A stretch of 37,930 bases of DNA, taken from assembly GCA_028287565.1 (NCBI GenBank), contig JAQBPK010000203.1:1-37930 (forward strand), given 5' to 3'. The stretch's first letter is position 1. Every line of letters starts with the position of its first letter. Below are positions 17,057 through 29,618 of this stretch, in pieces. The position numbers and the translations under genes are program-made. The stretch comes from Vulcanimicrobiota bacterium (GTDB lineage Bacteria > Vulcanimicrobiota > Vulcanimicrobiia > Vulcanimicrobiales > Vulcanimicrobiaceae). The notes below the pieces were generated by a model, which made no database searches, was not told where the DNA came from, and saw only the letters and a list, made by a program, of their open reading frames with translations.

Positions 17057-17154
17057 CCGGACGAGGCGCCGCGCGCGCACACGAGTGAGGCGAAGCCGCC
17101 AAGGTAGCGGTCTTTGGTTGCTTTGTTAGCCGATGCGACATACAGTACTAGCTA

Positions 17155-17181
17155 GCGTCGTAGGGCAGTACCTTGCGACGC
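17155..17181 (+). other. Hairpin in the upp-haloperoxidase intergenic region
   Basis: GCGTCG and CGACGC are perfectly complementary, and five more pairs (two of them G-T) extend the stem around a CAGTA loop. No T-run follows. It lies about 130 bp before the haloperoxidase start, inside a 258-bp stretch with no gene. It may be a leader structure or a weak terminator for upp. Confidence 0.35.
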
Positions 17182-17314
17182 GTTCGTAGCATCCGCGACG
17201 CTCGTCGTCGCCGGCCGGGCCGTGATTGTCCGGAGCATCAAATTCAGTTTCGGGACATCTGGGCGCAGTAGCGGATGCCTTTCCTGCGGCGAGCCACCCC
17301 GTTTGGAGGGGAAA

Positions 17315-18589
17315 ATGAGCTGTACCGACACGCCCTATCCCTGCCCGGTGCACGAGTACGCGCTCAGGCAGTCGCGCCAAGTCGAGCCGGATGCGAGCTA
17401 TTGGAACTATTGCCCGCAACTGCGGTTGATCTCGATCGAAGAACTCACCGAGATCACCGACGACCCAAATCATCCGGGCTATTTCCCGCCATACCCGGAC
17501 CCGTGCACGGCGCCGGGCAAGGCAGAGATCGAGCGCGAGATACAAGAGCTGCTGGATCTGCAGCACTTGCGAGACGAGCCGTGCAGCCTGGAGCTTTCCG
17601 CGCACGGAGAGTACGCGCTCACGGACTCGCCGTGCAAGCCGCGGCCGAAGCTACCGCATGCATTCGATTACCGAGCGCCGATCAGCAAGCTGCTAAACTT
17701 GCAACCGTTCGCGCTCGGCGCCGTGCTGGTGAACCGCTTTCCGGGAGAGCGGATCATCCACACCGGGCGTGGCATGGCGCGCGCCGTGGAGATGGAGACG
17801 CCCGGGCTGCATCATCGCCACGCGCTGAACTACCTGATGCGCACTCGCACGTCGTGGTCTCCGCCACGACAGGCGCTGGTATGGGCCGCGCTCGACGTCG
17901 GGCTTGCGAGCGCGTTGCAGGCTGCGTGGTACTACAAGTGGCTGAGCTCACGGCCGTACACGTCACGGCGAGAACGCCCGATTGAGTATTCCGCGCGCAA
18001 CAACAGCGGTTTGCACGTGCTGTTCGATCACCCCGACGAGTTGAACCCGACGTACTCCACGTGTCCCGAGGCGCGTCCATCGTGCGGCCCCGCGAGCATC
18101 GCGTTCAGCCCCGGGACTCCGCGGCATCCGGCGTACCCGTCGGGGCACAGCACGTATTCCGGTGCGGCTAGCACGATTCTCGGCTACTTCTTCGGCAATG
18201 ATCACACGCCGGAGTTTCTCCGGCTCGGCACACCCGCGACGATGATCGGCGAAGAAGCGCGGCGGATGGCCGACAACATCGGCATGGGGCGCCTCTGGGC
18301 CGGCGTCCACTGGCGTTCCGATCACGAAGCCGGGCTCAAGCTCGGACAAGTGGTTGCGTGCCTGGTGCTGCAGCAGCTCGCCAGCATCTGCGGCGGCGAT
18401 TTCGATCTGTGCCCGCCGGTTCCGAAAACCGTCGCGCAGTGCAAGTGCGAGAAAGACGACTGCCCCGACGACCCGCCGCCGCCATGCATTGATCTCAAGA
18501 AGAAGGCAAAACAGTGCCGCGACAAGTGCAAGCAAGACGACGATCGGGCACTCCCCGCCGTGCCCGGCACACCCGTGACGGCGCCGTAA
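17315..18589 (+). CDS. Vanadium-dependent haloperoxidase / PAP2-superfamily enzyme with Cys-rich tail
   Basis: 424 residues from ATG 17315, preceded by a strong GGAGGGG ribosome site at 17306-17312. The phosphate/vanadate-binding set is present in order: K208 with RP at 213-214 (KWLSSRP), PSGHSTYSG with the histidine at 278, and RLWAGVHWRSD with R326, H332 and D336. This is the PAP2/vanadium haloperoxidase active site. The HPAYPSGHSTYSGAA form is the one usual in bacterial haloperoxidase-like members. No signal peptide is seen. Oddly, the last 60 residues hold seven cysteines (366-405) among many Lys and Asp, like a metal-binding tail. Either halide oxidation or phosphatase activity is possible. 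The 45-bp repeat covers its last codons. Confidence 0.82.
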   Translation: MSCTDTPYPCPVHEYALRQSRQVEPDASYWNYCPQLRLISIEELTEITDDPNHPGYFPPYPDPCTAPGKAEIEREIQELLDLQHLRDEPCSLELSAHGEYALTDSPCKPRPKLPHAFDYRAPISKLLNLQPFALGAVLVNRFPGERIIHTGRGMARAVEMETPGLHHRHALNYLMRTRTSWSPPRQALVWAALDVGLASALQAAWYYKWLSSRPYTSRRERPIEYSARNNSGLHVLFDHPDELNPTYSTCPEARPSCGPASIAFSPGTPRHPAYPSGHSTYSGAASTILGYFFGNDHTPEFLRLGTPATMIGEEARRMADNIGMGRLWAGVHWRSDHEAGLKLGQVVACLVLQQLASICGGDFDLCPPVPKTVAQCKCEKDDCPDDPPPPCIDLKKKAKQCRDKCKQDDDRALPAVPGTPVTAP

Positions 18590-18617
18590 GCCACTCGCGC
18601 GTAACCGAGCCTCCGAC
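18573..18617 (+). repeat. Direct repeat, left copy
   Basis: Matches 24922-24970 with one mismatch and a 4-base gap. The final 27 bases (18591-18617) are identical to 24944-24970. The two copies are in the same orientation about 6.35 kb apart. The left copy spans the last codons and stop of the haloperoxidase gene. Possible boundary marks of an inserted segment, or a dispersed intergenic element. Confidence 0.8.
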
Positions 18618-18773
18618 CTGCATGAGCGGCTCCCCGTCGGGGGTCGCATGACTTGCCGCGGGCCGCCGCGCGCGAAATGGCGAAGAAGCAAGCAGTTTGA
18701 GAGCGGACGAGACATTTTCCGGGACGCAGCATCGTTCCACGGGCAGATTTTCCAGAGGCCGGCGGGTGAGGCA

Positions 18774-19838
18774 GTGCACATTCGAGGGTTAGCGGCGCGT
18801 GCGCTCGGCCTGGTGCGCTTCGGGAATTGGTGGACGCACAAGATCCCGCCGTTGTTGCTCGTCGTCTATGTCGAGCTCATTCGCCGGCACGCGCCGCTCG
18901 GCGCGTCGGTGGCTGCGATATGCGTCTTGGTGTTCTGCGTCTCGTGCGTCGCGGCGTACGGGCACGTCGTGAACGACTGGTGCGATATCGCGGACGACGA
19001 GCGGGCCGGAAAGCCGAACGCGATGCGCGACGTCCGCGTGGTTCAACGGGCTGCTCTGTGCGTCGGATTGCTTCTTGCCGGCTTCGTCGTCTTGGCCCCG
19101 TTCTCCAACGCTTGGCCCGCGCGCATCGCGCTCGCGGTGAACTATCTGTGGCCGACGCTCTATTCCATACCGGGCGTCCGGCTGAAGGAACGCGGGCTCC
19201 TGGGAGTCCTCAGCGACGCTGCCGGCTCGCACATCACACCGACGCTCTTCGCGCTCGCGGTCGCAGGCTTCTTCGTCCCCGGTCCCGCGAACGCCGTGGT
19301 TTTCGCGGCGCTGCTGCTATGGGCGACGGTCCTCGGAATCAAGGGAATCCTGTACCACATGATCGCCGACAGAGCGAACGACGAGACGGCTGGAGTCGAC
19401 ACCTTCGTCGCCACGTTCGACGTGAGCCGGTTGTTCGCAGTGCTGGCTCGATACAATCTGTTGGTGGAGTTGCCGGTCAGTATTGTGTTGACGGTCGTCG
19501 TCGCCGCTTTTCTGCCGCTGGCCGTCGCGGCGCTCGTCGTGTACCTGGCGCTGGAAAGTACGAAGTACGCGCTCGGCTTCGAGTTCGCGGTCAGCAGCGA
19601 CGCGCGGTTGCGCCGAGCGAGCGTGCCGTTTGCCAACGAGATGTTCTACACCCTGTGGCTTCCGCTCGCAGCCGCTGTTCAGCTTGCGCTTCACAGCGTT
19701 TGGTTCGCTTGGCTACCATTTGTTCACGGACTGCTTTTCCAGCAGCAGATCGCCGTTCAGATCGGCGACACGCGTGCGGTCATCAGCCAGCTCAAAGCAC
19801 GGTTCAGCCATCTGCGATCGAGGCGCATACACCGTTGA
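18774..19838 (+). CDS. UbiA-family prenyltransferase
   Basis: Integral membrane enzyme with about eight to nine membrane segments that transfers a prenyl chain to an acceptor. From the GTG at 18774 it has 354 residues; an ATG at 18648 would add 42 residues without family likeness, so the shorter form is preferred but not certain. The first Asp-rich motif, VVNDWCDIADDERAGKPN, lies near residue 65. A second segment, RLKERGLLGVLSDAAG, and the later YHMIADRANDETAGVDTF are typical of the polyprenyl and chlorophyll-synthase-like branch. The acceptor cannot be named. Context: a haloperoxidase gene before, a glycosyltransferase and a cyclase-like gene after, on one strand. Confidence 0.85.
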   Translation: MHIRGLAARALGLVRFGNWWTHKIPPLLLVVYVELIRRHAPLGASVAAICVLVFCVSCVAAYGHVVNDWCDIADDERAGKPNAMRDVRVVQRAALCVGLLLAGFVVLAPFSNAWPARIALAVNYLWPTLYSIPGVRLKERGLLGVLSDAAGSHITPTLFALAVAGFFVPGPANAVVFAALLLWATVLGIKGILYHMIADRANDETAGVDTFVATFDVSRLFAVLARYNLLVELPVSIVLTVVVAAFLPLAVAALVVYLALESTKYALGFEFAVSSDARLRRASVPFANEMFYTLWLPLAAAVQLALHSVWFAWLPFVHGLLFQQQIAVQIGDTRAVISQLKARFSHLRSRRIHR

Positions 19839-20020
19839 AACGCGACGCGATAAAGGGTAACGCTGATCCGCTTGCCTGCTGCGTTTGCGGGCTGGACCGG
19901 CCGTCCGGCGAGTATCGCCCGAAAGAAGCGCGTAGCCGTGCAGAGCCGATTCGCGGTACGGCCTCGCCGGGACGCTGAGTCCAGGGTCTACGCTTGGTGA
20001 CCTTCACAACCCGAGTGTGG

Positions 20021-20040
20021 CCGGCCGGCGCTCCGGCCGG
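20021..20040 (+). other. Strong GC hairpin between the UbiA and glycosyltransferase genes
   Basis: CCGGCCGG, a CGCT loop, then CCGGCCGG: a perfect 8-bp stem in the 277-bp gap between the prenyltransferase stop and the glycosyltransferase start. No T-run follows. It may end the upstream transcript or affect expression of the next gene. I see no gene in the rest of the gap. Confidence 0.4.
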
Positions 20041-20115
20041 TGTTCCGCGCCGCAAGCTCGAAGCACGGATCGAACTCGTGACGTCAATTCGCACACTTTT
20101 GGTCTCTGTACGCGC

Positions 20116-22149
20116 TTGAAAATCGTTCATATTGGTGATTCGGACAGCGGCGGGGGCGCCGCTCATGCGATGTCCCGGCTGCACGAAGCGCTGCGACGGC
20201 TCGGCGTCGATTCGCGTCTGCTCGTGCGGAACAGTCCTGCGCCCGGAACTGCGGTCCAAACGATAGGAACCCGCGGCGACGCGGACGATCTGTTCCCGGC
20301 AGTACGCGAAGCGGTCGTTCGGCAATACGTGGAACTGAACCGCACGAGCATAACGAACACCCATTTTTCGCTGCACATCGACGGAGCCGACGTATCGCGC
20401 GTGCCGCTCGTTGCGTCGTCGGACATCGCGCATCTCCACTGGACCGGATCGTTCCAAGCACCCGCCGACGTCCGGGCGCTTCTGGACGCCAAACCGGTCG
20501 TTTGGACGCTGCACGACCTGGAGCCGCTCACCGGGGGATGCCACTTCCCCGCCGGCTGTGAAGGATACACCGGCGATTGCGCGGGCTGCCCGCAGCTCGT
20601 TCGCGATCCGTTCGAGGTCACCGCCACGACATTGAGCGACAAGAAGACGCTTTGGGCAGGCGGTCGGCCGACGTTCATCGCGCCCTCGCGGTATATGGCG
20701 GAACGTGCGCGGCGCAGCGCCGTAGCGCAATGTGCGGCGGCTTCGATCGTTCACATTCCGTACGGCATCGACGTGGATAGGTTCCGCCCACAGCCCAAGG
20801 CCGCCGCCCGGCGCGCGCTGGGCCTGCCGGTGGACGGAACATACGTGCTCTGCGGTTCGAATTACAACGCGGAGCAGCGCAAAGGCCTGCGTTTCCTCGA
20901 CGGCGTCCTGGCTGCCGCAACAGCTCGTTCCCGGCCGGATTCCTCGAAGCTGACGCTTTTGACCGTCGGCGAGCCGAAACTCGACCTTCACGACGCCGAC
21001 GGCGCCGGCGTCATCCAGCTCGGGCGCGTCTCGGTAGACCTGATGCCGTCGGTCTATGCTGCCGCGGACGTCTTTCTGCATCCGTCGGTCGAAGACAACT
21101 TTCCGCTCATGCTGTTGGAGTCGATGAGCTGTGGGACGCCGGCGATCGCGTTCGATGTCGGCGGCGTAGCCGACATCGTGCAAGACGAGGTGTGCGGCCG
21201 CCTAGCCGCGGCGGGCGACGAGCTTGCCATGGCGGCGGCCTTGTCGTCCCTCGTTCACGACCGCGAAGCACGACAGCGCATGGGCGAGCGCGCGCGTGCG
21301 CACGTCGAAGAGCACTTCAGCGATAGTTCGGTCGCACGACGGCACGCCGAGCTCTATGACGATGTCGCCAAGAACCGAGCTGCGCCGCAAGCGCTCGCAG
21401 GCCGGTCACGACAAACCGGGATCGATGCGATATTTCCGCGCTGGTCCGCCGCGTGTCTCGTGCAAGAGATTGCGCTCGCACGCGAGCACGCTATGCAGCT
21501 CAACGAAGAATCGCATGCAAAATCGGAGCACATCGCGGGCCTTCAACGCGAATCTGCGGGCCTGGCGCGGAGCTTAGCCGACCAAAGCCGTCAAGTCCAA
21601 GAGAAAGAAGCGGAGCTCGCTGCGATCCACGAGGTGGCTGAAGAGCGCAAGGCCTTGGCGGACAAACTTCACGCCTCGGCCGCGAGCATCGAAGCGATAG
21701 CGGCGAACCTGCAACGCGAAGTTCGCGAACGGGACGATCTGCTTGGGAAGCTCGAAGCAACGATAGCCGAACAGCGTGCCGAAATCGAGCTGGTCCGTCG
21801 CGAAACGGCGGGGCTTGCGCGGAGCTTGGCCGAGCAAAGCCGTCAAGTACAGGAGAAAGAAGCGGAGCTCGGTGCGATCCACGAGGTGGCCGAAGAGCGC
21901 AAGGCCTTGGCGGACAAACTTCACGCCTCGGCCGCGAGCATCGAAGCCATAGCGGCGAACTTGCAAAAAGAAGTTCGCGAGCGGGACGATCTGCTGGCGG
22001 ATCTCGAAGCGGCGATCGACGAACAGCGCGCCGAAATCGAGCTGGTTCACCACGTCGCTGCCGATCGGCGGGAGCTCATCGAGCATTTGCACCGTGTGGC
22101 CGAGGAGCGAGCAGCCATCATCGACCGGCTCGTCGATGCGCCGCAGTAG
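20116..22149 (+). CDS. GT4 glycosyltransferase with a C-terminal tandem-repeat coiled coil
   Basis: 677 residues from the TTG at 20116, where LKIVHIGDSDSGGGAAHAM matches the normal GT4 start; a GTG at 20083 is possible. Residues about 1-400 are a GT-B fold transferase. It has WTLHDLEPLTGGCHFPAGC and a CAGCPQL cysteine cluster, as in WcaC-like enzymes, and the donor-site EDNFPLMLLESMSCGTPAI. From about residue 450 to the end the protein is a long, charged, helical coiled coil built mostly of two 84-residue repeats (12 heptads each). GT4 enzymes with such tails are unusual; the tail may hold a partner or give oligomers. It is followed 12 bp later by the cyclase-like gene. Confidence 0.88.
   Translation: MKIVHIGDSDSGGGAAHAMSRLHEALRRLGVDSRLLVRNSPAPGTAVQTIGTRGDADDLFPAVREAVVRQYVELNRTSITNTHFSLHIDGADVSRVPLVASSDIAHLHWTGSFQAPADVRALLDAKPVVWTLHDLEPLTGGCHFPAGCEGYTGDCAGCPQLVRDPFEVTATTLSDKKTLWAGGRPTFIAPSRYMAERARRSAVAQCAAASIVHIPYGIDVDRFRPQPKAAARRALGLPVDGTYVLCGSNYNAEQRKGLRFLDGVLAAATARSRPDSSKLTLLTVGEPKLDLHDADGAGVIQLGRVSVDLMPSVYAAADVFLHPSVEDNFPLMLLESMSCGTPAIAFDVGGVADIVQDEVCGRLAAAGDELAMAAALSSLVHDREARQRMGERARAHVEEHFSDSSVARRHAELYDDVAKNRAAPQALAGRSRQTGIDAIFPRWSAACLVQEIALAREHAMQLNEESHAKSEHIAGLQRESAGLARSLADQSRQVQEKEAELAAIHEVAEERKALADKLHASAASIEAIAANLQREVRERDDLLGKLEATIAEQRAEIELVRRETAGLARSLAEQSRQVQEKEAELGAIHEVAEERKALADKLHASAASIEAIAANLQKEVRERDDLLADLEAAIDEQRAEIELVHHVAADRRELIEHLHRVAEERAAIIDRLVDAPQ
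21547..22050 (+). repeat. Two tandem 252-bp repeats inside the glycosyltransferase gene
   Basis: Copy 1 is 21547-21798 and copy 2 is 21799-22050. The period is exactly 252 bp or 84 codons. The copies share long identical stretches, such as the run around GAGAAAGAAGCGGAGCTC at 21601 and 21853, implying recent duplication or ongoing conversion. They encode coiled coil only. Confidence 0.9.
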
Positions 22150-22161
22150 GCCGCGCGTGCG

Positions 22162-23184
22162 ATGACCGCGGGTGTCGGCGCCGCGGCGGCGAGGTTGGAC
22201 GCGGGCGTCGCAAAGGCCGCGACGTTCCTGCGCGAATGTCTGCGGTCCGGGGCGTACGGCCTGGCGTGCATCGGCAGCGACGGCTTGCCGCGCGTGTCGA
22301 ACGACAAAGGCCACGTCTTCGTCGCGGCCTTCATAGCGGAGGCGATGACCGGGCTGTTCGACGAGATCGACCGAACGATCGTGCTGGTCCGAATCCTCTC
22401 CGAGGAGAACGGCGGCCTGTGGGGCTTCGCGCCGCCGATGTCGTTCCACGACGACGCGTTTCGCGTGTTCCACGTCGACGCCGACGACACGGCGTACGTC
22501 CTTCGCACGTTGCGACGGCTCGGCGCGAACCGCAATCCCGAGTGCCTCGCGCGGTTCTACCGCGAGCCCGAGCGGCTGTTCGCCACGTTCGACGCGCCCG
22601 GCCCCACGGCGCTGACAACGGAGCCGTCGCCGCGGCACAACCTCCTCGCGCACCCGGACGTCAACGCGAATGTCTTCCTGGCGCTCCGCGGCACGCACGT
22701 CGAAGGGCTCGTCGACTACGAGCTGCTCTTACGGACGCAGGACGCGAGCGGGTTCTGGCGATCGTACTTCTACCCGAGCCTGCTGTTCGGCACGCTCCTC
22801 GCGCTCGAGGCGATGGACGGCAACCCGGCGCTGCACGGCATTCCGGCGTTCGCGGATGCGACCGCGCGCGCGCTCGCGTTCGTCGCCGGCTCGCAGAACG
22901 CCGACGGGTCGTGGGGCCGAGCGGGCGATCCGTACGAAACCGCGCTCGCCGTCGCCGCGCTCGCCGGCCGTCACGAGCACGATGAGGCAACGCGCCGCGG
23001 CGTCGAGCACCTGCTCTCGACGATGGCGGCGGACGGTTCATGGATGTCGGAGGCGTGCGTGTGGGAGTTCCACGCCGGCGAAACCGACGTGTGGCGCGCC
23101 TACGACCGCCACCGCGCGTACGTCACCGCGCGCTGCACGACCGCGCTACGACGAGCCGCAGGCCAGCTAGCGGCGTTCCCGTGA
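22162..23184 (+). CDS. Short squalene-cyclase/prenyltransferase-like protein with a DxDD motif
   Basis: 340 residues of alpha-alpha barrel repeats. QW-like repeat motifs appear at 192-199 (TQDASGFW), 245-252 (QNADGSWG) and 289-294. Residues 106-111 read DADDTA, the catalytic DxDD of class II terpene cyclases, which start cyclisation by protonation. Full class II cyclases usually exceed 500 residues, so this protein seems to have only one barrel, or two very short ones. It could be a compact cyclase, a partner subunit, or a non-catalytic relative. The position after the UbiA and GT4 genes on the same strand, 12 bp from the GT4 stop, supports an isoprenoid role. Confidence 0.75.
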   Translation: MTAGVGAAAARLDAGVAKAATFLRECLRSGAYGLACIGSDGLPRVSNDKGHVFVAAFIAEAMTGLFDEIDRTIVLVRILSEENGGLWGFAPPMSFHDDAFRVFHVDADDTAYVLRTLRRLGANRNPECLARFYREPERLFATFDAPGPTALTTEPSPRHNLLAHPDVNANVFLALRGTHVEGLVDYELLLRTQDASGFWRSYFYPSLLFGTLLALEAMDGNPALHGIPAFADATARALAFVAGSQNADGSWGRAGDPYETALAVAALAGRHEHDEATRRGVEHLLSTMAADGSWMSEACVWEFHAGETDVWRAYDRHRAYVTARCTTALRRAAGQLAAFP

Positions 23185-23220
23185 CCGCAAGAATGTAGGG
23201 CCTATGCCGAACTCGTGATG

Positions 23221-23247
23221 GGCATCGATCCCGCGTACCACGATGCC
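23221..23247. terminator. Candidate bidirectional terminator hairpin
   Basis: GGCATCG and CGATGCC form a 7-bp stem with a 13-base loop. It lies between the converging cyclase-like gene (ends 23184) and the nuclease gene (ends 23277). No T-tract is seen on either strand, so this is a weak call based on placement. Confidence 0.35.
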
Positions 23248-23276
23248 GGCGTGCTTCATAAGCGTTGGGTCCTCGC

Positions 23277-24890
23277 CTAGTGAGGAAGCGAACACGCTAT
23301 GAGGCGTCGGAACCGCGCGAAGTGCAAAGCGTCGTCCGTGCCCGCTGCAACCAATGCGAACGGTTTCATCGACCAGCGAATGTCGGTGCTCACCACGGCG
23401 GCGGCGCAGTCGCAGAATTTGGCGTCCGGCAAAGCCGCGCGTAGTGCGGGATACGCCACGGTTCGCGATTCGTGCACGATGTGGGCGATCTTCCGATGCC
23501 GCTCACGTGCGAGCGCCTGAGCGATGAACGCCTCTATGCCGGTATCCGTTGCGAGCGCGAAACCGATGCCTTCCTGCTCGCACCATTGTATCGCATGCGA
23601 TATCTTGACGACGTTCTCGTACAGGAACACTTGCCATGCCGGCTTGATCTCGATGAGCAAACCCCGGCCGTCGGCGAGGCGCAGCAGCACGTCCGGATAG
23701 AACGCGCGTTGCGCATCGTCGCGAATGTACGGCAGTGAGAGCGGCTGCTCTTGATACGCGGCGATGTGCGCCGCCGCCGCCTCGAACTGCTCGAACGTAG
23801 CGCGTTCCAGGTACGACTCGAACCAGATCACCCGTTTGTTCAACGCGCTCTCGAACGAGCCGACGTTGTTTTTCGCATCGACCGCACGCGCCGGAATCGT
23901 GCCGACGGGATAGTTTGGGTGAATGCGCTCCGGCCACCACGCTCCGGCAAGCAGCTGGCCGAACCGGACCGCGCGATTGCGTTCGCGCTGCTGTTCGGCA
24001 TGGCGGACGGCGACGTCGTCCTTCAGCCGTTGCGCTTCTGCGTTCGTCAATCCGGCGAGACGGCCAAGGGCGAGGCTCGTCGCCGGGCTATGCTCTGACG
24101 TTTCGGCATGGAACGACGTCTGGAGGGTGTGCAGCACCGTCGCCGCGTCGAGCGCGTCGCGGCGTGAGGAGCCATGATGGAGCAGCGTGTGCGATGCGAT
24201 CCGAAGCGCCGCGGCGGCTGGCCACGCTCCGTCGCGAATCTCGGAGATCGCCTTGTATTCGAGAGCTCGTACCGAACCGCGCTGCATGCCCAGCGCAAAT
24301 GCTGTCCCCTGCTGGGACAACGGAGGATCCTTGAGCCCGAGCCGTGCGGTGAGCACCTCGCGCTGCTCCGAGACCGCGAGACCTGCGATCGCGGCTTCGA
24401 ACAGGCTGAACAGGCCTTCCGCAAGGATCAGCCATGCATCGCGGTCGGTGCGCTCAGGCAATGCCATCAGCTGCGCCAGCGTGACGCCAGCGCGGGCGAA
24501 CTCCGCCAGGACCGCCGGCGTGAGATCGTCACGGAGGCGCGGTGCCGGCGCGGGACGCCGCCGTTTGTAGCCGGGCGCCGGAGGCGGTGCGACTTCAGCC
24601 TCGCGCGGTATCGGTGCATGTCGTGCATCGCCGATCCGGTACTCGTAACCGTGAGCGACGAGCAGCCGGACGACGCGCTCACCCAGCGCGTGCAGCGCCG
24701 CGTCGTACTCGTCGCCGCTGCAGCACAGTTCCGCCCGGATGGTGCTGGCAAACAAGCCGCGCACGACACCGCTTGCGTCCGCGTGCACGGTCAGTATCTG
24801 GTACAGGCGCGCGGAAAGCTCGCCGGACACACCCATGGTCCCCATGCCATACGATTCGGCTCGAACCATCGCCCCGAATAGGGAACCCAC
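23277..24890 (-). CDS. Sigma-region-4-like HTH protein fused to a TnsA-like PD-(D/E)XK nuclease
   Basis: 537 residues. Residues 22-90 form a helical domain I do not recognise, followed by a Pro/Arg-rich linker (93-120). Around 172-220 the pattern EQREVLTARLGL, then QQGTAFALGMQRGSVRALE, ending in YKAISEIRD, resembles region 4 of sigma-70, a promoter-binding helix-turn-helix. The C-terminal domain (about 350-460) is nuclease-like: FESYLER with E359, then YQEQPLSLPYIRD, then FYPDVLL with D400 and LIEIKP with E414 and K416. This is the TnsA N-domain arrangement. No TnsB, TnsC or other transposition gene is nearby. The first codon at 24890 is GTG; ATGs at 24869, 24845 and 24836 are possible. Biological role is unknown: defence, mobile-element or regulatory. 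Confidence 0.78.
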   Translation of the reverse strand: MGSLFGAMVRAESYGMGTMGVSGELSARLYQILTVHADASGVVRGLFASTIRAELCCSGDEYDAALHALGERVVRLLVAHGYEYRIGDARHAPIPREAEVAPPPAPGYKRRRPAPAPRLRDDLTPAVLAEFARAGVTLAQLMALPERTDRDAWLILAEGLFSLFEAAIAGLAVSEQREVLTARLGLKDPPLSQQGTAFALGMQRGSVRALEYKAISEIRDGAWPAAAALRIASHTLLHHGSSRRDALDAATVLHTLQTSFHAETSEHSPATSLALGRLAGLTNAEAQRLKDDVAVRHAEQQRERNRAVRFGQLLAGAWWPERIHPNYPVGTIPARAVDAKNNVGSFESALNKRVIWFESYLERATFEQFEAAAAHIAAYQEQPLSLPYIRDDAQRAFYPDVLLRLADGRGLLIEIKPAWQVFLYENVVKISHAIQWCEQEGIGFALATDTGIEAFIAQALARERHRKIAHIVHESRTVAYPALRAALPDAKFCDCAAAVVSTDIRWSMKPFALVAAGTDDALHFARFRRLIACSLPH

Positions 24891-24921
24891 CGCCCTTATG
24901 TCGCCGGACGGGCAGACTCAG

Positions 24922-24970
24922 CCGTGACGGCGCGGTAAGCGGACCACTCGCGCGTAACCGAGCCTCCGAC
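24922..24970 (+). repeat. Direct repeat, right copy
   Basis: Near-identical to 18573-18617, with four extra bases (CGGA) after GTAAG. It lies about 30 bp upstream of the nuclease gene start and 12 bp from the end of the small gene at 24983. It is not coding in any convincing frame here. Confidence 0.8.
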
Positions 24971-24982
24971 GCTGCGTTCACG

Positions 24983-25306
24983 CTAGCAAGGCCACAGCGG
25001 GCCGGCCTCGATGACGTGCGACTGAACGGCCGCCAAGACGTCGTCCTGGTGCTTGTGCAGCTTCAGCGCGAGCAGAATCTCAGCATGGTCGGCGGCGGCT
25101 TGAAGATCTTCCGCGACGTTTCCGCGGCGGCGAGAAACGGTCGCCAAGAGGATCAGCGACACAAGCCCGTTCGGGCCGCACGAACTCTCGTAAGTAAGAA
25201 ACGCTTCACGCAGGGACTGCTCGGATTTGTTGAGCGCGGCTCGCGTCCAATCGATACCGACGCGGTCGAACAGCTCGGGGGCCTTGAACGGTACGACGTT
25301 CTTCAT
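24983..25306 (-). CDS. Small orphan protein of unknown function
   Basis: 107 residues from the ATG at 25306 (MKNVVPFKAPELFDRVG). It is predicted mostly helical, soluble and acidic-to-neutral, with two cysteines (one in SSCGPNG and one next to the C terminus). No family is recognised. The open frame extends to 25525, but the extra part is Arg/Pro-rich and unlike protein, and the promoter-like signal at 25482-25506 lies inside it, so the shorter start is preferred. The transcript would have a leader of about 170 bases. It could be co-transcribed with the nuclease gene, with the right repeat copy between them. Confidence 0.5.
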   Translation of the reverse strand: MKNVVPFKAPELFDRVGIDWTRAALNKSEQSLREAFLTYESSCGPNGLVSLILLATVSRRRGNVAEDLQAAADHAEILLALKLHKHQDDVLAAVQSHVIEAGPLWPC

Positions 25307-25481
25307 GACGCGTCGCTCGTGCAATGCGGGGTGACCAATGCGAGCGCGTTGAATAGGCGTGATGTCATTCGGTGGCTTCCTCCATCGGGTGACAGGCCTG
25401 GTCGGTGTCTTTAGCACCGATCGGGCCGCTCTGTGTTGTAGCGGATGACGACGCCTGATGCCGCGCGTCCATCCGTCGCTA

Positions 25482-25506
25482 ATTATAGCACAAACATCGC
25501 ACAAAC
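25482..25506 (-). promoter_or_regulatory. Extended -10 promoter with a direct-repeat operator
   Basis: On the minus strand TGCTATAAT is a perfect extended -10 box (TATAAT at 25482-25487). Immediately upstream are two identical octamers GTTTGTGC separated by 3 bases (25488-25495 and 25499-25506), an 11-bp period or one helical turn. This fits a repressor or activator site. The likely target is the small gene starting at 25306 and perhaps the nuclease gene beyond. Confidence 0.55.
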
Positions 25507-25567
25507 GTTCGATGGAGACAGTCAAAGTTTTCGCGACAATACGTGCCCACGTCGGCCCTCGCAGGAC

Positions 25568-26056
25568 TCAGCCGATGATCGTGGTTTCTTTGGAACGAAG
25601 CCTTGTTACGACTGCACGATCCGCCGGACCAAATCGCAGTAGCGCTTTTGCCGTGACACGGTAGTGGTGTCCGGACACCAGCGCGAAAAGCTGCTTGAGG
25701 TTCACCGCAGATTCGTAGCTCTGACCGGATTTGAGCGCGTCGCCCGTTGATGTAATGCGGCCGGCCGCAATCGGGGGGACGAGCCTGCGAGGATGCCGAT
25801 GCTCGGAATCGCTGTCGAGGTCAACGATGTTGAAGTCATTGTCGACGGTCGAAAATGCACGATATATTGACTGCGTTGCCGAGGTCATGTTCCGAATTCG
25901 GACAATGACGGCGCCGGGAACTGAACCTCGTGCGAGCTCATATGCAAATCCGGGATTTTCGACGACCTGAATACGAACCGCTTTGTCGTCCGCAAAACCT
26001 GGTACGGCGAAACCCATCTTCACCGTGAGGAAGCTTAGGAATGCTAGGCGTCGCAT
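25568..26056 (-). CDS. Exported protein of unknown function
   Basis: 162 residues. I start at the ATG at 26056 because MRRLAFLSFLTVKMGFAVPG is a clear signal peptide. It is preceded by GAGGGAGA as ribosome site; the ATG at 26071 would add five residues. The mature domain contains AVIVRIRNMTS, LKSGQSYESAVNLKQLF and HHYRVTAKALLRF, a beta-sandwich-like pattern of a small periplasmic or surface protein. No family assigned. It lies between the orphan gene and the SEFIR gene, all on the minus strand, in a stretch of lower G+C than the surrounding chromosome. Confidence 0.6.
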   Translation of the reverse strand: MRRLAFLSFLTVKMGFAVPGFADDKAVRIQVVENPGFAYELARGSVPGAVIVRIRNMTSATQSIYRAFSTVDNDFNIVDLDSDSEHRHPRRLVPPIAAGRITSTGDALKSGQSYESAVNLKQLFALVSGHHYRVTAKALLRFGPADRAVVTRLRSKETTIIG

Positions 26057-26163
26057 GGTCGTCTCCCTCACCCTTCACGAAGATTGCCGTCCACTGCGGC
26101 AGATTGCGCGCCTGAGTGTCCCTCGGTTTGGATACATTACGCTCCCGAAGGCCGCATTGCCAG

Positions 26164-27419
26164 CTAGTTGGACGTCGGACAGACTCCAGCGACGATAATT
26201 GTTATCGGCGCGACGTTCGAATACTGCCGTTTCCGGACACCGGCGAAGTCTACGCTGACTCCGCTGTCCGCCGTTTCAAGGTCTAGTTTCGAAATGCGTT
26301 CCACCGTGTGCGTTAGGTAAAGCATCAAGACACACATAAGTCGCGCGACCGCGAGCACCTCGTCATCTACCGCCGACGCGGACTTGATGACCGCGGGAAT
26401 CGGCGAGCCGGTTACAGCGAGCGACGCGCCGATCCGACCGCTCACGAACGCTTCGAACGTCGTGTCATTGAGTCGGCCCCCCAAGTCGCGTTGTGCGGAT
26501 CGCGCCTCGAGCTTCTCGTCGAGTAGGATACGTCGCGCGCGCAGGACAGCGATGTCGTCCGCGGAGATGCTGTTATAGCCCATCTCCATTGGGTAGCCCG
26601 ACGCTTCATCTTCGACGAGATCGATTTCGATGTACTCATGGTCTTCGCGGAGGTATTCTCGGAAGCCATGAACGCCTGCCCATAGCGCGCTCAAGTTGTA
26701 CGCGACGCCTAATCGCCGTCGATAATTCTGCAGTTGACGCAACGCGGACGCCTCATTGGCGCTCCGAGGCGCCAGCACCATCTTCAGCGCTCGCCCTTCG
26801 CGCGAGAAATCGGCCAGCGGAGCGACAGCACCGCCGTCGTCACCCAGATGGAAGAACGCCAGCCGTGGTGCGGTTACTGAACTCGATGAAGCACGTTTCG
26901 CGGCCGCTCGCGATTCCAGCGAGATGGATGGCATCTCGCGGACCGTTCCGAGCGGTGGCGGAACATACGCCGGCTGATCGGTCAGCACCCGGTACAGGTC
27001 GTCGTAGTCCCGAGGCAGCACGAAGCGCGTGTCGTCCCGCAAGAATTCCGGAATCCACCGGACGTCGTCAGCGTGGAAGACGATCGGAATCACACCGTGC
27101 TGCGAGCCTTGGGCCTCCAGCACGCGCCGGTTCAGCATCCCGCTTTCGAACGTCGCGCCCTGACCGATGCCGGGCTGCTCCTCGAGATGATACCTGCGGT
27201 AATACGGCTCCGAACATACGACAAGCACGATGTCGGTGCCGCTCATCTTCTCGGCCATCCAGCGCGACCAACTCCGGCCGGTCGCGGTTCGAACAAGTCA
27301 AGGGCACACGGCACGCCTTCGGTGATGAGCCGGTGAGCGAGCGCGAACACCTCGGCGTCGTGAGGACCACGGACATAGCTGATGACCGTCTCGTGCGGTG
27401 AAAGGCGCGGGGGCATCAT
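26164..27419 (-). pseudogene. SEFIR (TIR-like) domain protein interrupted by a frameshift
   Basis: Two overlapping frames together make one SEFIR protein of about 418 residues. The upstream frame (start 27419, with a CGGCGGAG ribosome site) gives HETVISYVRGPHDAEVF and ends its homology at LDLFE (27288-27299). The downstream frame, one base out of phase, resumes at GRSWSRWMAEKMSG (from about 27279) and gives DIVLVVCSEPYYRRY, then FESGMLNRRVL and the HGVIPIVFHADD strand, the classic SEFIR core. Restoring one base would join them. After a serine-rich linker, residues about 180-418 form a C-terminal domain I do not recognise. SEFIR and TIR proteins in bacteria often serve in defence or signalling. 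The break may be a real mutation, recoding or an assembly error. Confidence 0.75.
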
Positions 27420-27562
27420 AGCCGCTCCGCCGGAAGCCGTGAAGACTCCTCGACGTTTTGCCCTTACTGCGCCAAGCCGGCGCCGTTCAGAGTAAGCGGA
27501 CACGCAATTCCGACCGCATCATCTTTCAAGGCAGCACGCGGAACCGCCGCGGCTTCTGTTCG

Positions 27563-27868
27563 TCATGGCTTGCTAAGCCAGCACCTTGTTTCGCTCGTTG
27601 CGCGTTCATCGGTTATCTCTACGGGGTTCAAATATGCGGCAGAAAAACGCTGCTCCCAAGTCCTTATCGTTGGCGACAGGCGGCTAACGAAAAGATCTTC
27701 TGCCGTGGCTATCTGTGTCCAGTTATTTTGTAACGCAAGCATCAGCCGGTATGTCTGAAGTTCTCGACTATTGCGTATGAGCGTCGCTGCGGCTGATCGC
27801 GTCAGAATCGGTGCTGACGTTTGCGCCGTGGCTGGTCCACGGAGCGTCAGGCAAAGCGCGCTTAACAA
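27563..27868 (-). CDS. Possible small exported protein
   Basis: The frame reads LLSALCLTLRGPATAQ as a signal-peptide-like start and then about 80 residues including RNSRELQTYRLMLALQNNW. The only conventional start is a TTG at 27868, which lacks a near ribosome site. A good AGGAGG lies 24 bases further upstream, and the intervening in-frame codons (from CTG) would also be hydrophobic. The gene may be mis-started, damaged or not real. No family found. The rest of 27420-28099 shows no convincing gene on either strand. Confidence 0.35.
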   Translation of the reverse strand: MLSALCLTLRGPATAQTSAPILTRSAAATLIRNSRELQTYRLMLALQNNWTQIATAEDLFVSRLSPTIRTWEQRFSAAYLNPVEITDERATSETRCWLSKP

Positions 27869-28099
27869 GATGATAAGCAGCCGAAGATGCGTCCTCCTCT
27901 GCTACACAGGCAACCCCGCCAGTGTGTCTAAGCGAGCATTCGTCGGCTATTGTCTCTCCCCGATCAAAGCCAGGACCGATAACGTCGGCAAAGCAATCAG
28001 GTGTTGCGGTCGGCGCAGGTGCTTCTCGGAGTTTTAAAGGTGCCGGGCTTTTGACGGCGCGTTTTGTCGGCTATGCGGAAAGGCGTTCGAGTGTGATAA

Positions 28100-28129
28100 G
28101 TGACCGTCGTCGATGGCGACGACGGTCAC
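28100..28129. terminator. Perfect 13-bp hairpin, likely terminator
   Basis: GTGACCGTCGTCG and CGACGACGGTCAC are exact complements around the loop ATGG. It lies 11 bp beyond the end of the minus-strand gene at 28140-28427, the right place for a terminator; the bases after it on that strand (TTATCACAC) are only weakly T-rich. Confidence 0.6.
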
Positions 28130-28139
28130 TCCCCGCCCG

Positions 28140-28427
28140 CTACGGCAACGCGATTGCGCGAACGTCGGCCTCGTACTTACATGCACGTTCGAGCGCACGA
28201 TTTGCCTCGCCGGCGAAGTCGAACGGCTCGTCGGCCACCGTGAAGACCGGATTGATTTTCGCGTCTTCACCACCCTTGACGTAGGTCTCATGTTCCCAAC
28301 GAGCGTGATGCGCGGCTCCCGCGAGCAAGGTCTGATGGAAATCACGGGTCGCGCTCGGTTCGCGATTCGTCGTCAAATAATCAATAACTGGTTGTAGTTT
28401 CTCGTAGTAAGATTCACGTAAACTCAT
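28140..28427 (-). CDS. Small orphan protein of unknown function
   Basis: 95 residues from the ATG at 28427, preceded by GAGGGG at a 5-base spacing. The start is MSLRESYYEKLQPVIDYLTT, and the rest is helical with several His and acidic residues and two short conserved-looking segments (HHARWEHETYVKGG and DFAGEANRALERACKYEAD). No family known to me. A 13-base inverted repeat, CGGTTTGAAACCG (28437-28449), sits just before the ribosome site and may be an operator. The upstream stretch 28441-28500 has only 24 G or C in 60, far below the chromosome level, which suggests acquired DNA. Confidence 0.55.
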   Translation of the reverse strand: MSLRESYYEKLQPVIDYLTTNREPSATRDFHQTLLAGAAHHARWEHETYVKGGEDAKINPVFTVADEPFDFAGEANRALERACKYEADVRAIALP

Positions 28428-28689
28428 GTGGCCCCTCGGTTTGAAACCGATTTGTGCTTTATTGATAAATCGCCCAATAAAAAGACGAATGGCCGCCACA
28501 CCGTAAGTGCGGAAAGCCATGCGATGATGATACCACCGTTACTGCGTCATGTCCAGAAAAGCGGTGTGGCTATAGAGATCTTGCTCTATTGAAAAGTCGC
28601 CGCGGCCCAAAGTTGCCATATATGCGCCGCCACGAAAATGAAACTCCGGTCACCCGCCCGCAAAACAGGAAGAAGAACGGTTCGTCACG

Positions 28690-29460
28690 ATGAGCCGAGG
28701 TCAGTTCACGACCCCCAACGCCAGCGTCGCGGCGGCCGTGGCCGGTTCTAAATCACGACGGACCGGTTAGCCAGCGCTGTTCCTTGGCCAGCTGCGGCGA
28801 CCGAAGACGCTTGTCGAGATCGGCGCGCTGAACCGGTCTCGATCAACGACCTACCCGGGCGCGCCAACGTCACCGACGCCAACCTCGGGCACGCCGTCCG
28901 CCGGCTGATCGCGCTTGAGTTGGTCCGACGTTATCGGCGCGCCGATCACCTCGACCGCTACCTGCTCACCCTTGACCGCTCCCATCCCGTAGCAGATTCG
29001 GCCATGGCGCTGGGATTTATCGCCATCGCGACCCTTGCCTGGACCCCCTTCCCTTCGCCGCCAATATTTGGCGGTTCAGGAACGACCGAACGTCATCGAG
29101 CCGCGCCCTTCGGATGCCGTCCGGGCCAGATCGAGACCATCTTTGGTCATCCCAATTGACCGTGACGATGGTCGTCTTTGGGACGCTCCAAGCCGTCGAC
29201 GGTTCGACAATCTCGATCATCGGGATCAAGCCCGACGGCGACACGCGCCGCCTACTGGATCCGTTGAGGCCGACGGGTCTTCATGAGCGAGCTGTTCGGG
29301 ACCATCCGCTCTACGCGCTCACCCCGGAGCCTTTGGGCCGACCCCAGCGGATGTCGTCCGCGCCAATGCTCGTCGGCCACCCGAGGTTGCCAGCCTGGGT
29401 GGTGCAGCTTTTGGGCGCTGATGCTTACGAGACGGTTCTCGAACCGGATTCCCGTAAGAC
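28690..29460 (+). pseudogene. Decayed winged-helix / nucleotidyltransferase gene
   Basis: Pieces of one protein appear in all three plus frames. Frame A (ATG 28690) gives MSRGQFTTP, a TAG at 28768, then ALFLGQLRRPKTLVEIGALN. Frame C gives GHAVRRLIALELVRRYRR followed by LTLDRSHPVADSAMAL; together these are a winged-helix domain. Frame B (about 29160-29400) gives VTMVVFG, then DGSTISIIGIKPDGD and ALTPEPLGRPQR, which resemble a degraded GSxAR/DxDxV nucleotidyltransferase (MNT-type) core and its tail. At least one nonsense change and two frameshifts are needed, and the catalytic GS and DxD are lost. No other gene is seen from 28428 to 29618; a weak hairpin lies at 28572-28589. Confidence 0.45.
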
Positions 29461-29618
29461 GCAAGCTCGGATTGGAAGCAGGCCCAGTCCGCGACCCTCG
29501 GGGAATCCACCACGTTTGAGGATGCCTCGCTCGCCCGACGTTCGGAAGCCGGCGTCGCTCGCGACTAGGCGGCCGCAAAACGGGCCGCCTTCGAGGTCTA
29601 CCGAATAAACGGAATTGC

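What the first reader, a model, noticed from the sequence alone, without database searches (positions are those of the whole stretch)
23277..24890. Sigma-region-4-like HTH joined to a TnsA-like nuclease
Seen: an EQREVLTARLGL...SVRALEYKAISEIRD segment (about 172-220) with the spacing of a sigma-70 region 4 HTH, and a C-terminal E359...D400...E414-x-K416 nuclease core in the order of TnsA. Known: TnsA cuts transposon ends with TnsB, and region 4 contacts the -35 box. Inference: a nuclease guided to promoter-like DNA, or a mobile-element or defence protein. Its N-terminal domain and its role look undescribed to me, and no transposase or ATPase partner is nearby.
Basis: partly seen in the sequence, partly recalled or inferred. 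Interest (0 to 1): 0.78.

Follow-up and report, generated by a model that had tools for sequence, protein, structure and literature searches.

The report
Sigma-4 domain fused to TnsA-type nuclease
This gene makes a DNA-cutting enzyme like the one that frees the Tn7 transposon, but joined to the part of a sigma factor that normally finds promoters; relatives ride on plasmids, a phage and a genomic island without any transposon genes, so it is probably a stand-alone weapon or tool of mobile DNA that nobody seems to have studied.

Summary
Window 23277-24890(-) encodes a 537-aa protein whose C-terminal part is a TnsA-type PD-(D/E)XK nuclease: Pfam 2e-8; model pLDDT 91; TnsA Z 12.3, next family 5.8; E362, D400, E414 and K416 intact. 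A winged-helix-like segment follows. Residues 149-230 have a sigma-70 region 4 fold (Z 10.1, 1.5 A over 81 residues). The sigma-4 signal in this copy alone is weak. It becomes firm through a family with the same architecture assembled here. Members lie on about 290 enterobacterial IncI-type plasmid records, mycobacterial plasmids, other Mycobacteriales genomes and a phage contig. Here it sits in a 12.5-kb strain-specific insertion beside a SEFIR gene. No member examined has a recognisable transposase or ATPase partner. One Nocardia clade has lost the catalytic residues but is under purifying selection. Best reading: an accessory nuclease of mobile elements, docked to promoter DNA or RNA polymerase by sigma-4, acting in conflict with competing DNA. 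That function is inferred, not shown. The window copy has replaced two residues equivalent to sigma-70's -35 base readers (E585 to G, Q589 to A), so 'guided to promoters' is doubtful for this copy. I found no description in the searchable literature.

The parts
23277..24890 (-). sigma-4/TnsA fusion gene, 537 aa, GTG start
24447..24890 (-). N-terminal region, residues 1-148; no relatives found, low-confidence model. Other members have a Myb/SANT-like WTxEED...HxRSxGAI segment (my reading) or nothing here
24201..24446 (-). sigma-70 region 4-like domain, residues 149-230
24225..24284 (-). recognition helix of the region-4 HTH, residues 203-222 (QRGSVRALEYKAISEIR); family consensus SRERVRQL; E585 and Q589 equivalents are Gly205 and Ala209
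23916..24200 (-). helical middle segment, residues 231-325, with family-conserved A279-G280
23541..23870 (-). TnsA-type PD-(D/E)XK catalytic domain, residues 341-450; E362, E381-Q382, P399-D400, E414-x-K416
23343..23540 (-). winged-helix-like C-terminal segment, residues 451-516, in the position of the TnsA C-terminal domain
17081..29618 (.). strain-specific insertion; in same-genus genomes the flanks are 0.25-0.7 kb apart
26164..27503 (-). SEFIR (TIR-like) defence-type gene in the same insertion, split into two frames (27243-27503 and 26164-27258)
24983..25525 (-). 180-aa protein of unknown function upstream; a homolog lies at the same hotspot in another species (L082:7800-8506)

Best explanation
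The protein is a free-standing DNA endonuclease carried as cargo by mobile or strain-variable DNA. A TnsA-type PD-(D/E)XK domain with a winged-helix-like tail does the cutting. In front of it, a sigma-70 region 4-like domain acts as the docking module, reading -35-like DNA and/or gripping the RNA polymerase beta-flap. I propose that this places the nuclease on transcribed incoming or competing DNA (phage or plasmid), which it nicks or cuts: an element-versus-element interference system. Shown: both domains, intact catalytic residues, accessory distribution, no recognised transposition partner. Inferred: cleavage, the docking target and the conflict role. In the window copy the base-reading residues are changed, so there the domain more likely works through polymerase contact, another sequence, or non-specific DNA binding.
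For: TnsA is the specific fold match: Z 12.3, 2.8 A over 123 residues; best non-TnsA chain Z 5.8; Foldseek E below 0.001 to TnsA only. The region-4 match spans the whole domain, not just an HTH, and the family profile retrieves SigA/HrdB/RpoD at E 3e-15 to 1e-11. Both domains exceed Pfam cut-offs together in IncI-plasmid, M. abscessus plasmid, phage and Mycobacteriales members. Accessory distribution: 207 of 5426 complete E. coli genomes hold most of the gene; all 261 places are on plasmids, none on chromosomes. It lies between excA and hok, with an alternative allele lacking it. It sits between virion-protein genes and on the opposite strand in a 34-kb phage contig. It lies in a strain-specific insertion beside a SEFIR gene here. 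The sigma-4 part of relatives also matches the MzaA defence-protein model, a possible precedent for such a domain in defence.
Against: No activity data exist. No PADLOC model covers the protein. The Nocardia clade keeps the protein under purifying selection (dN/dS about 0.1-0.25) with catalytic residues gone, so at least part of the family works without cutting. The window copy lacks two -35 reader equivalents. The same loci would fit a homing or regulatory gene.
Confidence: 0.45

Rival explanations
1. A DNA-binding regulator: sigma-4 binds promoters or polymerase and the TnsA-like fold serves as a DNA-binding or structural part; cleavage is secondary or has been lost.
For: A single Nocardiaceae clade (100/99 support) has lost the D and E-x-K residues yet stays under purifying selection in both domains, in a partly conserved chromosomal neighbourhood.
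Against: Every member of that alignment outside the clade, window included, keeps E, D, E-x-K, which a regulator would not need.
Confidence: 0.22
2. A homing-type or self-spreading endonuclease that cuts alleles lacking it and spreads by repair.
For: In IncI plasmids the gene occupies a sharply bounded site between excA and hok, and an allele without it exists. It is intergenic in the phage contig.
Against: No common insertion site across members; in IncI plasmids it replaces about 160 bp of unrelated sequence rather than being a clean insertion; sigma-4 is not, to my knowledge, a homing specificity domain.
Confidence: 0.13
3. The TnsA subunit of a Tn7-like transposon acting with a TnsB supplied elsewhere.
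For: Best fold match is TnsA; four rve-type transposase matches exist elsewhere in the draft genome.
Against: No recognised TnsB or TnsC domain in the scanned neighbours here or in the relatives; this is the only PF08722 hit in the draft host genome.
Confidence: 0.05
4. The sigma-4 resemblance in the window copy is only a generic HTH retained by descent, without sigma-like binding.
For: Subthreshold Pfam score; changed reader residues and the longest branch in the tree.
Against: Full-domain match Z 10.1; leave-one-out profile above all 2000 shuffles.
Confidence: 0.15

Closest known systems
TnsA of Tn7 and Tn7-like transposons (1t0f, 1f1z, 9bw1)
   Same: PD-(D/E)XK catalytic fold and active-site order, followed by a winged-helix-like segment
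   Different: Sigma-4 domain and long N-terminal extension in front; no TnsB/TnsC partner recognised; residue 414 is Glu where, from memory, Tn7 TnsA has Gln130
Sigma-70 family region 4 (SigA, RpoD)
   Same: Whole region-4 fold; RERxRQ recognition motif in most catalytically intact members
   Different: No sigma region 2 model matched; fused to a nuclease; reader residues changed in the window copy
MzaA of the MzaABCDE anti-phage system (PADLOC PDLC02203)
   Same: Its model positions about 593-663 match the sigma-4 part of four of the eight relatives scanned at E 0.001 or better, six at 0.003
   Different: Only that segment matches; no TnsA part, no other Mza genes recognised; the window protein itself gave no PADLOC match
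NCBIfam NF033179 TnsA_like_Actin
   Same: Partial match to the nuclease, 41.4 bits
   Different: Far below its 110-bit cut-off; annotated as a heteromeric transposase subunit

Membership tests
TnsA-type PD-(D/E)XK endonuclease | TnsA_N domain above Pfam cut-off | tested here: met
   34.9 bits vs 26.5
TnsA-type PD-(D/E)XK endonuclease | TnsA fold clearly above other nucleases | tested here: met
   Z 12.3 vs next family 5.8
TnsA-type PD-(D/E)XK endonuclease | Catalytic acidic residues and lysine | tested here: met
   E362, D400, E414, K416, conserved in the catalytically intact members
TnsA-type PD-(D/E)XK endonuclease | DNA cleavage | not testable with these tools
   no assay
Tn7-like transposon component | tnsB and tnsC adjacent | tested here: not met
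   no rve or AAA partner domain in the scanned window ORFs or the immediate neighbours of scanned relatives (the one ABC-transporter ATPase there is of transport type); annotated plasmid neighbours are tra, excA, hok, WhiB and others
Sigma-70 region 4 domain | Region-4 fold over the full domain | tested here: met
   81 residues, 1.5 A, Z 10.1
Sigma-70 region 4 domain | Pfam Sigma70_r4 above cut-off | tested here: not met
   window copy 17.2 vs 24.1 bits; met in 7 relatives
Sigma-70 region 4 domain | -35 reading residues (R584, E585, R588, Q589 equivalents) | tested here: not met
   window copy R, G, R, A; most relatives R, E or D, R, Q
RNA polymerase sigma factor | Region 2 present | tested here: not met
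   no region 2 family matched
Known anti-phage defence system | Match to a defence-protein model over most of the protein | tested here: not met
   none for the window protein; only the sigma-4 part of relatives matches MzaA

The most novel reading that the evidence does not exclude
A new class of element-borne interference nuclease that finds its target through the transcription machinery: a sigma-4 domain docks a TnsA-type nuclease on promoters or RNA polymerase of competing DNA, and a Nocardia branch has turned the same protein into a catalytically dead form that works by binding alone.
Probability: 0.3. Interest if true: 0.85.

Novelty: new variant of a known kind. Interest (0 to 1): 0.62.

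Why it matters
TnsA is known as half of a two-part transposase. Here it appears alone, with a sigma-factor domain as its apparent targeting part, on conjugative plasmids of E. coli and Shigella, actinobacterial plasmids, a phage and a variable island. If sigma-4 docking is real, it would link transcription to DNA destruction in element conflict. The E. coli plasmid version makes this directly testable in a laboratory strain.

Tried and rejected
Genome-contig scan with the single window protein: nothing; it needed the family alignment. PDB sequence search with the window protein alone: nothing. The own-phylum profile search was swamped by housekeeping sigma factors through the sigma-4 columns; the only full-length member among 149 genomes was the window's own. 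Viral scans with exact-type patterns found nothing; the A6 scan gave one full member, L085; the other returned loci carry the nuclease domain without a detected sigma-4, mostly in short proteins. A conserved partner gene: the genes upstream of the M. abscessus and M. houstonense members are unrelated. A gene shared next to the Nocardia dead clade (L037:10647-11630) has no Pfam hit. FinQ as the alternative cargo at the same IncI site: rejected, because it lies beyond hok, between hok and trbA. A Tn7-like transposon: rejected for lack of partners. Literature: searches for TnsA with sigma region 4, defence, IncI1 or excA, and for the RefSeq product name, found no description of this protein. That covers open-licence PubMed Central papers only.

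Full report
What is there. The ORF at 23277-24890(-) is a real gene: 537 aa, coding-type codon bias, with relatives in other bacteria. Its C-terminal half is a TnsA-type nuclease. Pfam Tn7_TnsA-like_N is above cut-off, and a separate model of residues 301-537 has pLDDT 91 and pTM 0.88. Among solved structures only TnsA stands out: Foldseek E 3.7e-5; VIA-align Z 12.3 over 123 residues against 5.8 for the best other chain. After the catalytic domain the chain continues into a winged-helix-like segment, in the position of the TnsA C-terminal domain; the winged-helix matches there are only middling (Z about 5).

Sigma-4. In the window copy taken alone the signal is weak: Pfam 17.2 bits against a 24.1 cut-off, and 15.7 bits in a leave-one-out profile, above all 2000 shuffles. 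The full-length model matches SigA region 4 over the whole domain, residues 149-230, Z 10.1, 1.5 A. That model drew on the family alignment and has modest confidence there (pLDDT about 50-72). The family makes the case firm: its profile finds SigA, HrdB and RpoD at E 3e-15 to 1e-11. Relatives on the E. coli plasmid, the M. abscessus plasmid and the phage, and three Mycobacteriales members, hold both Pfam domains above cut-off; L037 passes for sigma-4 only.

The family. Members with both domains: about 290 plasmid records, mostly Escherichia and Shigella; M. abscessus pGD21-1; Mycolicibacterium houstonense and Rhodococcus; further Mycobacteriales (9 of 299 genomes, counting the centre genome itself; 3 of 396 in a phylum-wide Actinomycetota sample, again counting the centre); and one phage contig, L085. 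In the window's own phylum no other full-length member was seen in 149 genomes. The window copy is the longest branch of the tree, and its position is unsure.

Context. In E. coli the gene is plasmid-restricted: 261 places on plasmids, none on chromosomes, in 256 of 5426 genomes, 207 of them with most of the gene; some copies are interrupted by insertion sequences. It lies between the exclusion gene excA and hok. The allele without it has about 160 bp of different sequence between the same flanks, and other plasmids carry other small genes there. In L085 it lies on the strand opposite to a major head protein and an internal virion protein gene. In the window it lies within a 12.5-kb block (17.1-29.6 kb) absent from same-genus genomes, whose flanks are 0.25-0.7 kb apart there. 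That block includes a SEFIR gene and a GC dip. A second species has different cargo at the site but shares the 180-aa neighbour. No transposase or AAA partner was recognised in any of the neighbourhoods scanned.

A dead branch. The Nocardiaceae copies replace D400 by T or S and E-x-K by D-x-(E, Q, I, A or V), form one clade (100/99), and show dN/dS of about 0.1-0.25 overall, with the nuclease-domain stretch no looser. So the fold is kept for something other than cutting in that branch.

Reader residues. E. coli RpoD region 4 reads TRERIRQIE. From general knowledge R584, E585, R588 and Q589 contact the -35 element. Catalytically intact relatives mostly read SRERVRQL; Nocardia reads SRDRxRQL; the window copy reads QRGSVRAL. 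The window copy therefore keeps two of the four and has lost E585 and Q589 equivalents.

How it most likely works. Shown: a TnsA-type nuclease with intact active site, a sigma-4 docking fold, accessory mobile distribution, no transposition partner recognised. Inferred: sigma-4 brings the nuclease to promoter DNA or to RNA polymerase on competing DNA, and the nuclease damages it. The MzaA match suggests that sigma-4 domains recur in defence proteins. Rivals are a regulator, a homing nuclease and a transposase subunit; a neutral statement is that the biological role is untested.

Limits. The host genome is a draft (84% complete, 4% contamination) and unnamed. Actinomycetota and the window's phylum were the only groups whose genomes could be sampled; plasmid and phage collections are biased to Enterobacteriaceae. 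Literature was restricted to open-licence papers.

Noticed in passing
window 26164-27503 (-): SEFIR (TIR-like) gene, PADLOC bSEFIR 1.7e-13, whose N-terminal part (27243-27503) and remainder (26164-27258) are in different frames: a frameshift, pseudogene or assembly error.
   Followed up: partly
window 24983-25525 and L082:7800-8506: A 180-aa protein of unknown function shared between two different insertions at the same genomic hotspot in two species.
   Followed up: no
window 17081-29618: Hotspot between a core gene ending near 17.06 kb and a dCMP-deaminase-type gene at 29.62 kb; empty or differently filled in same-genus genomes.
   Followed up: partly
L037, L041, L042, L045, L050, L051 and relatives: Nocardiaceae clade with nuclease catalytic residues lost but both domains under purifying selection.
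   Followed up: yes
L037:10647-11630, L042:10617-11579, L041:16067-17053: An uncharacterised gene, on the opposite strand next to the Nocardia members, is conserved in all eight loci compared (in L041 it lies about 5.4 kb away); no Pfam hit.
   Followed up: partly
PADLOC MzaA model, about positions 593-663: The MzaA anti-phage protein model matches the sigma-4 part of these proteins, suggesting MzaA itself ends in a sigma-4-like domain.
   Followed up: no
L057:8182-8919: A gene that looks like RNase HI (my reading of the sequence) directly precedes and overlaps the member on a contig that also carries a ParA-like gene.
   Followed up: no
window 22162-23184: Squalene-hopene-cyclase-like gene whose homologs in same-genus genomes lie far away from the island's flanking genes.
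   Followed up: partly
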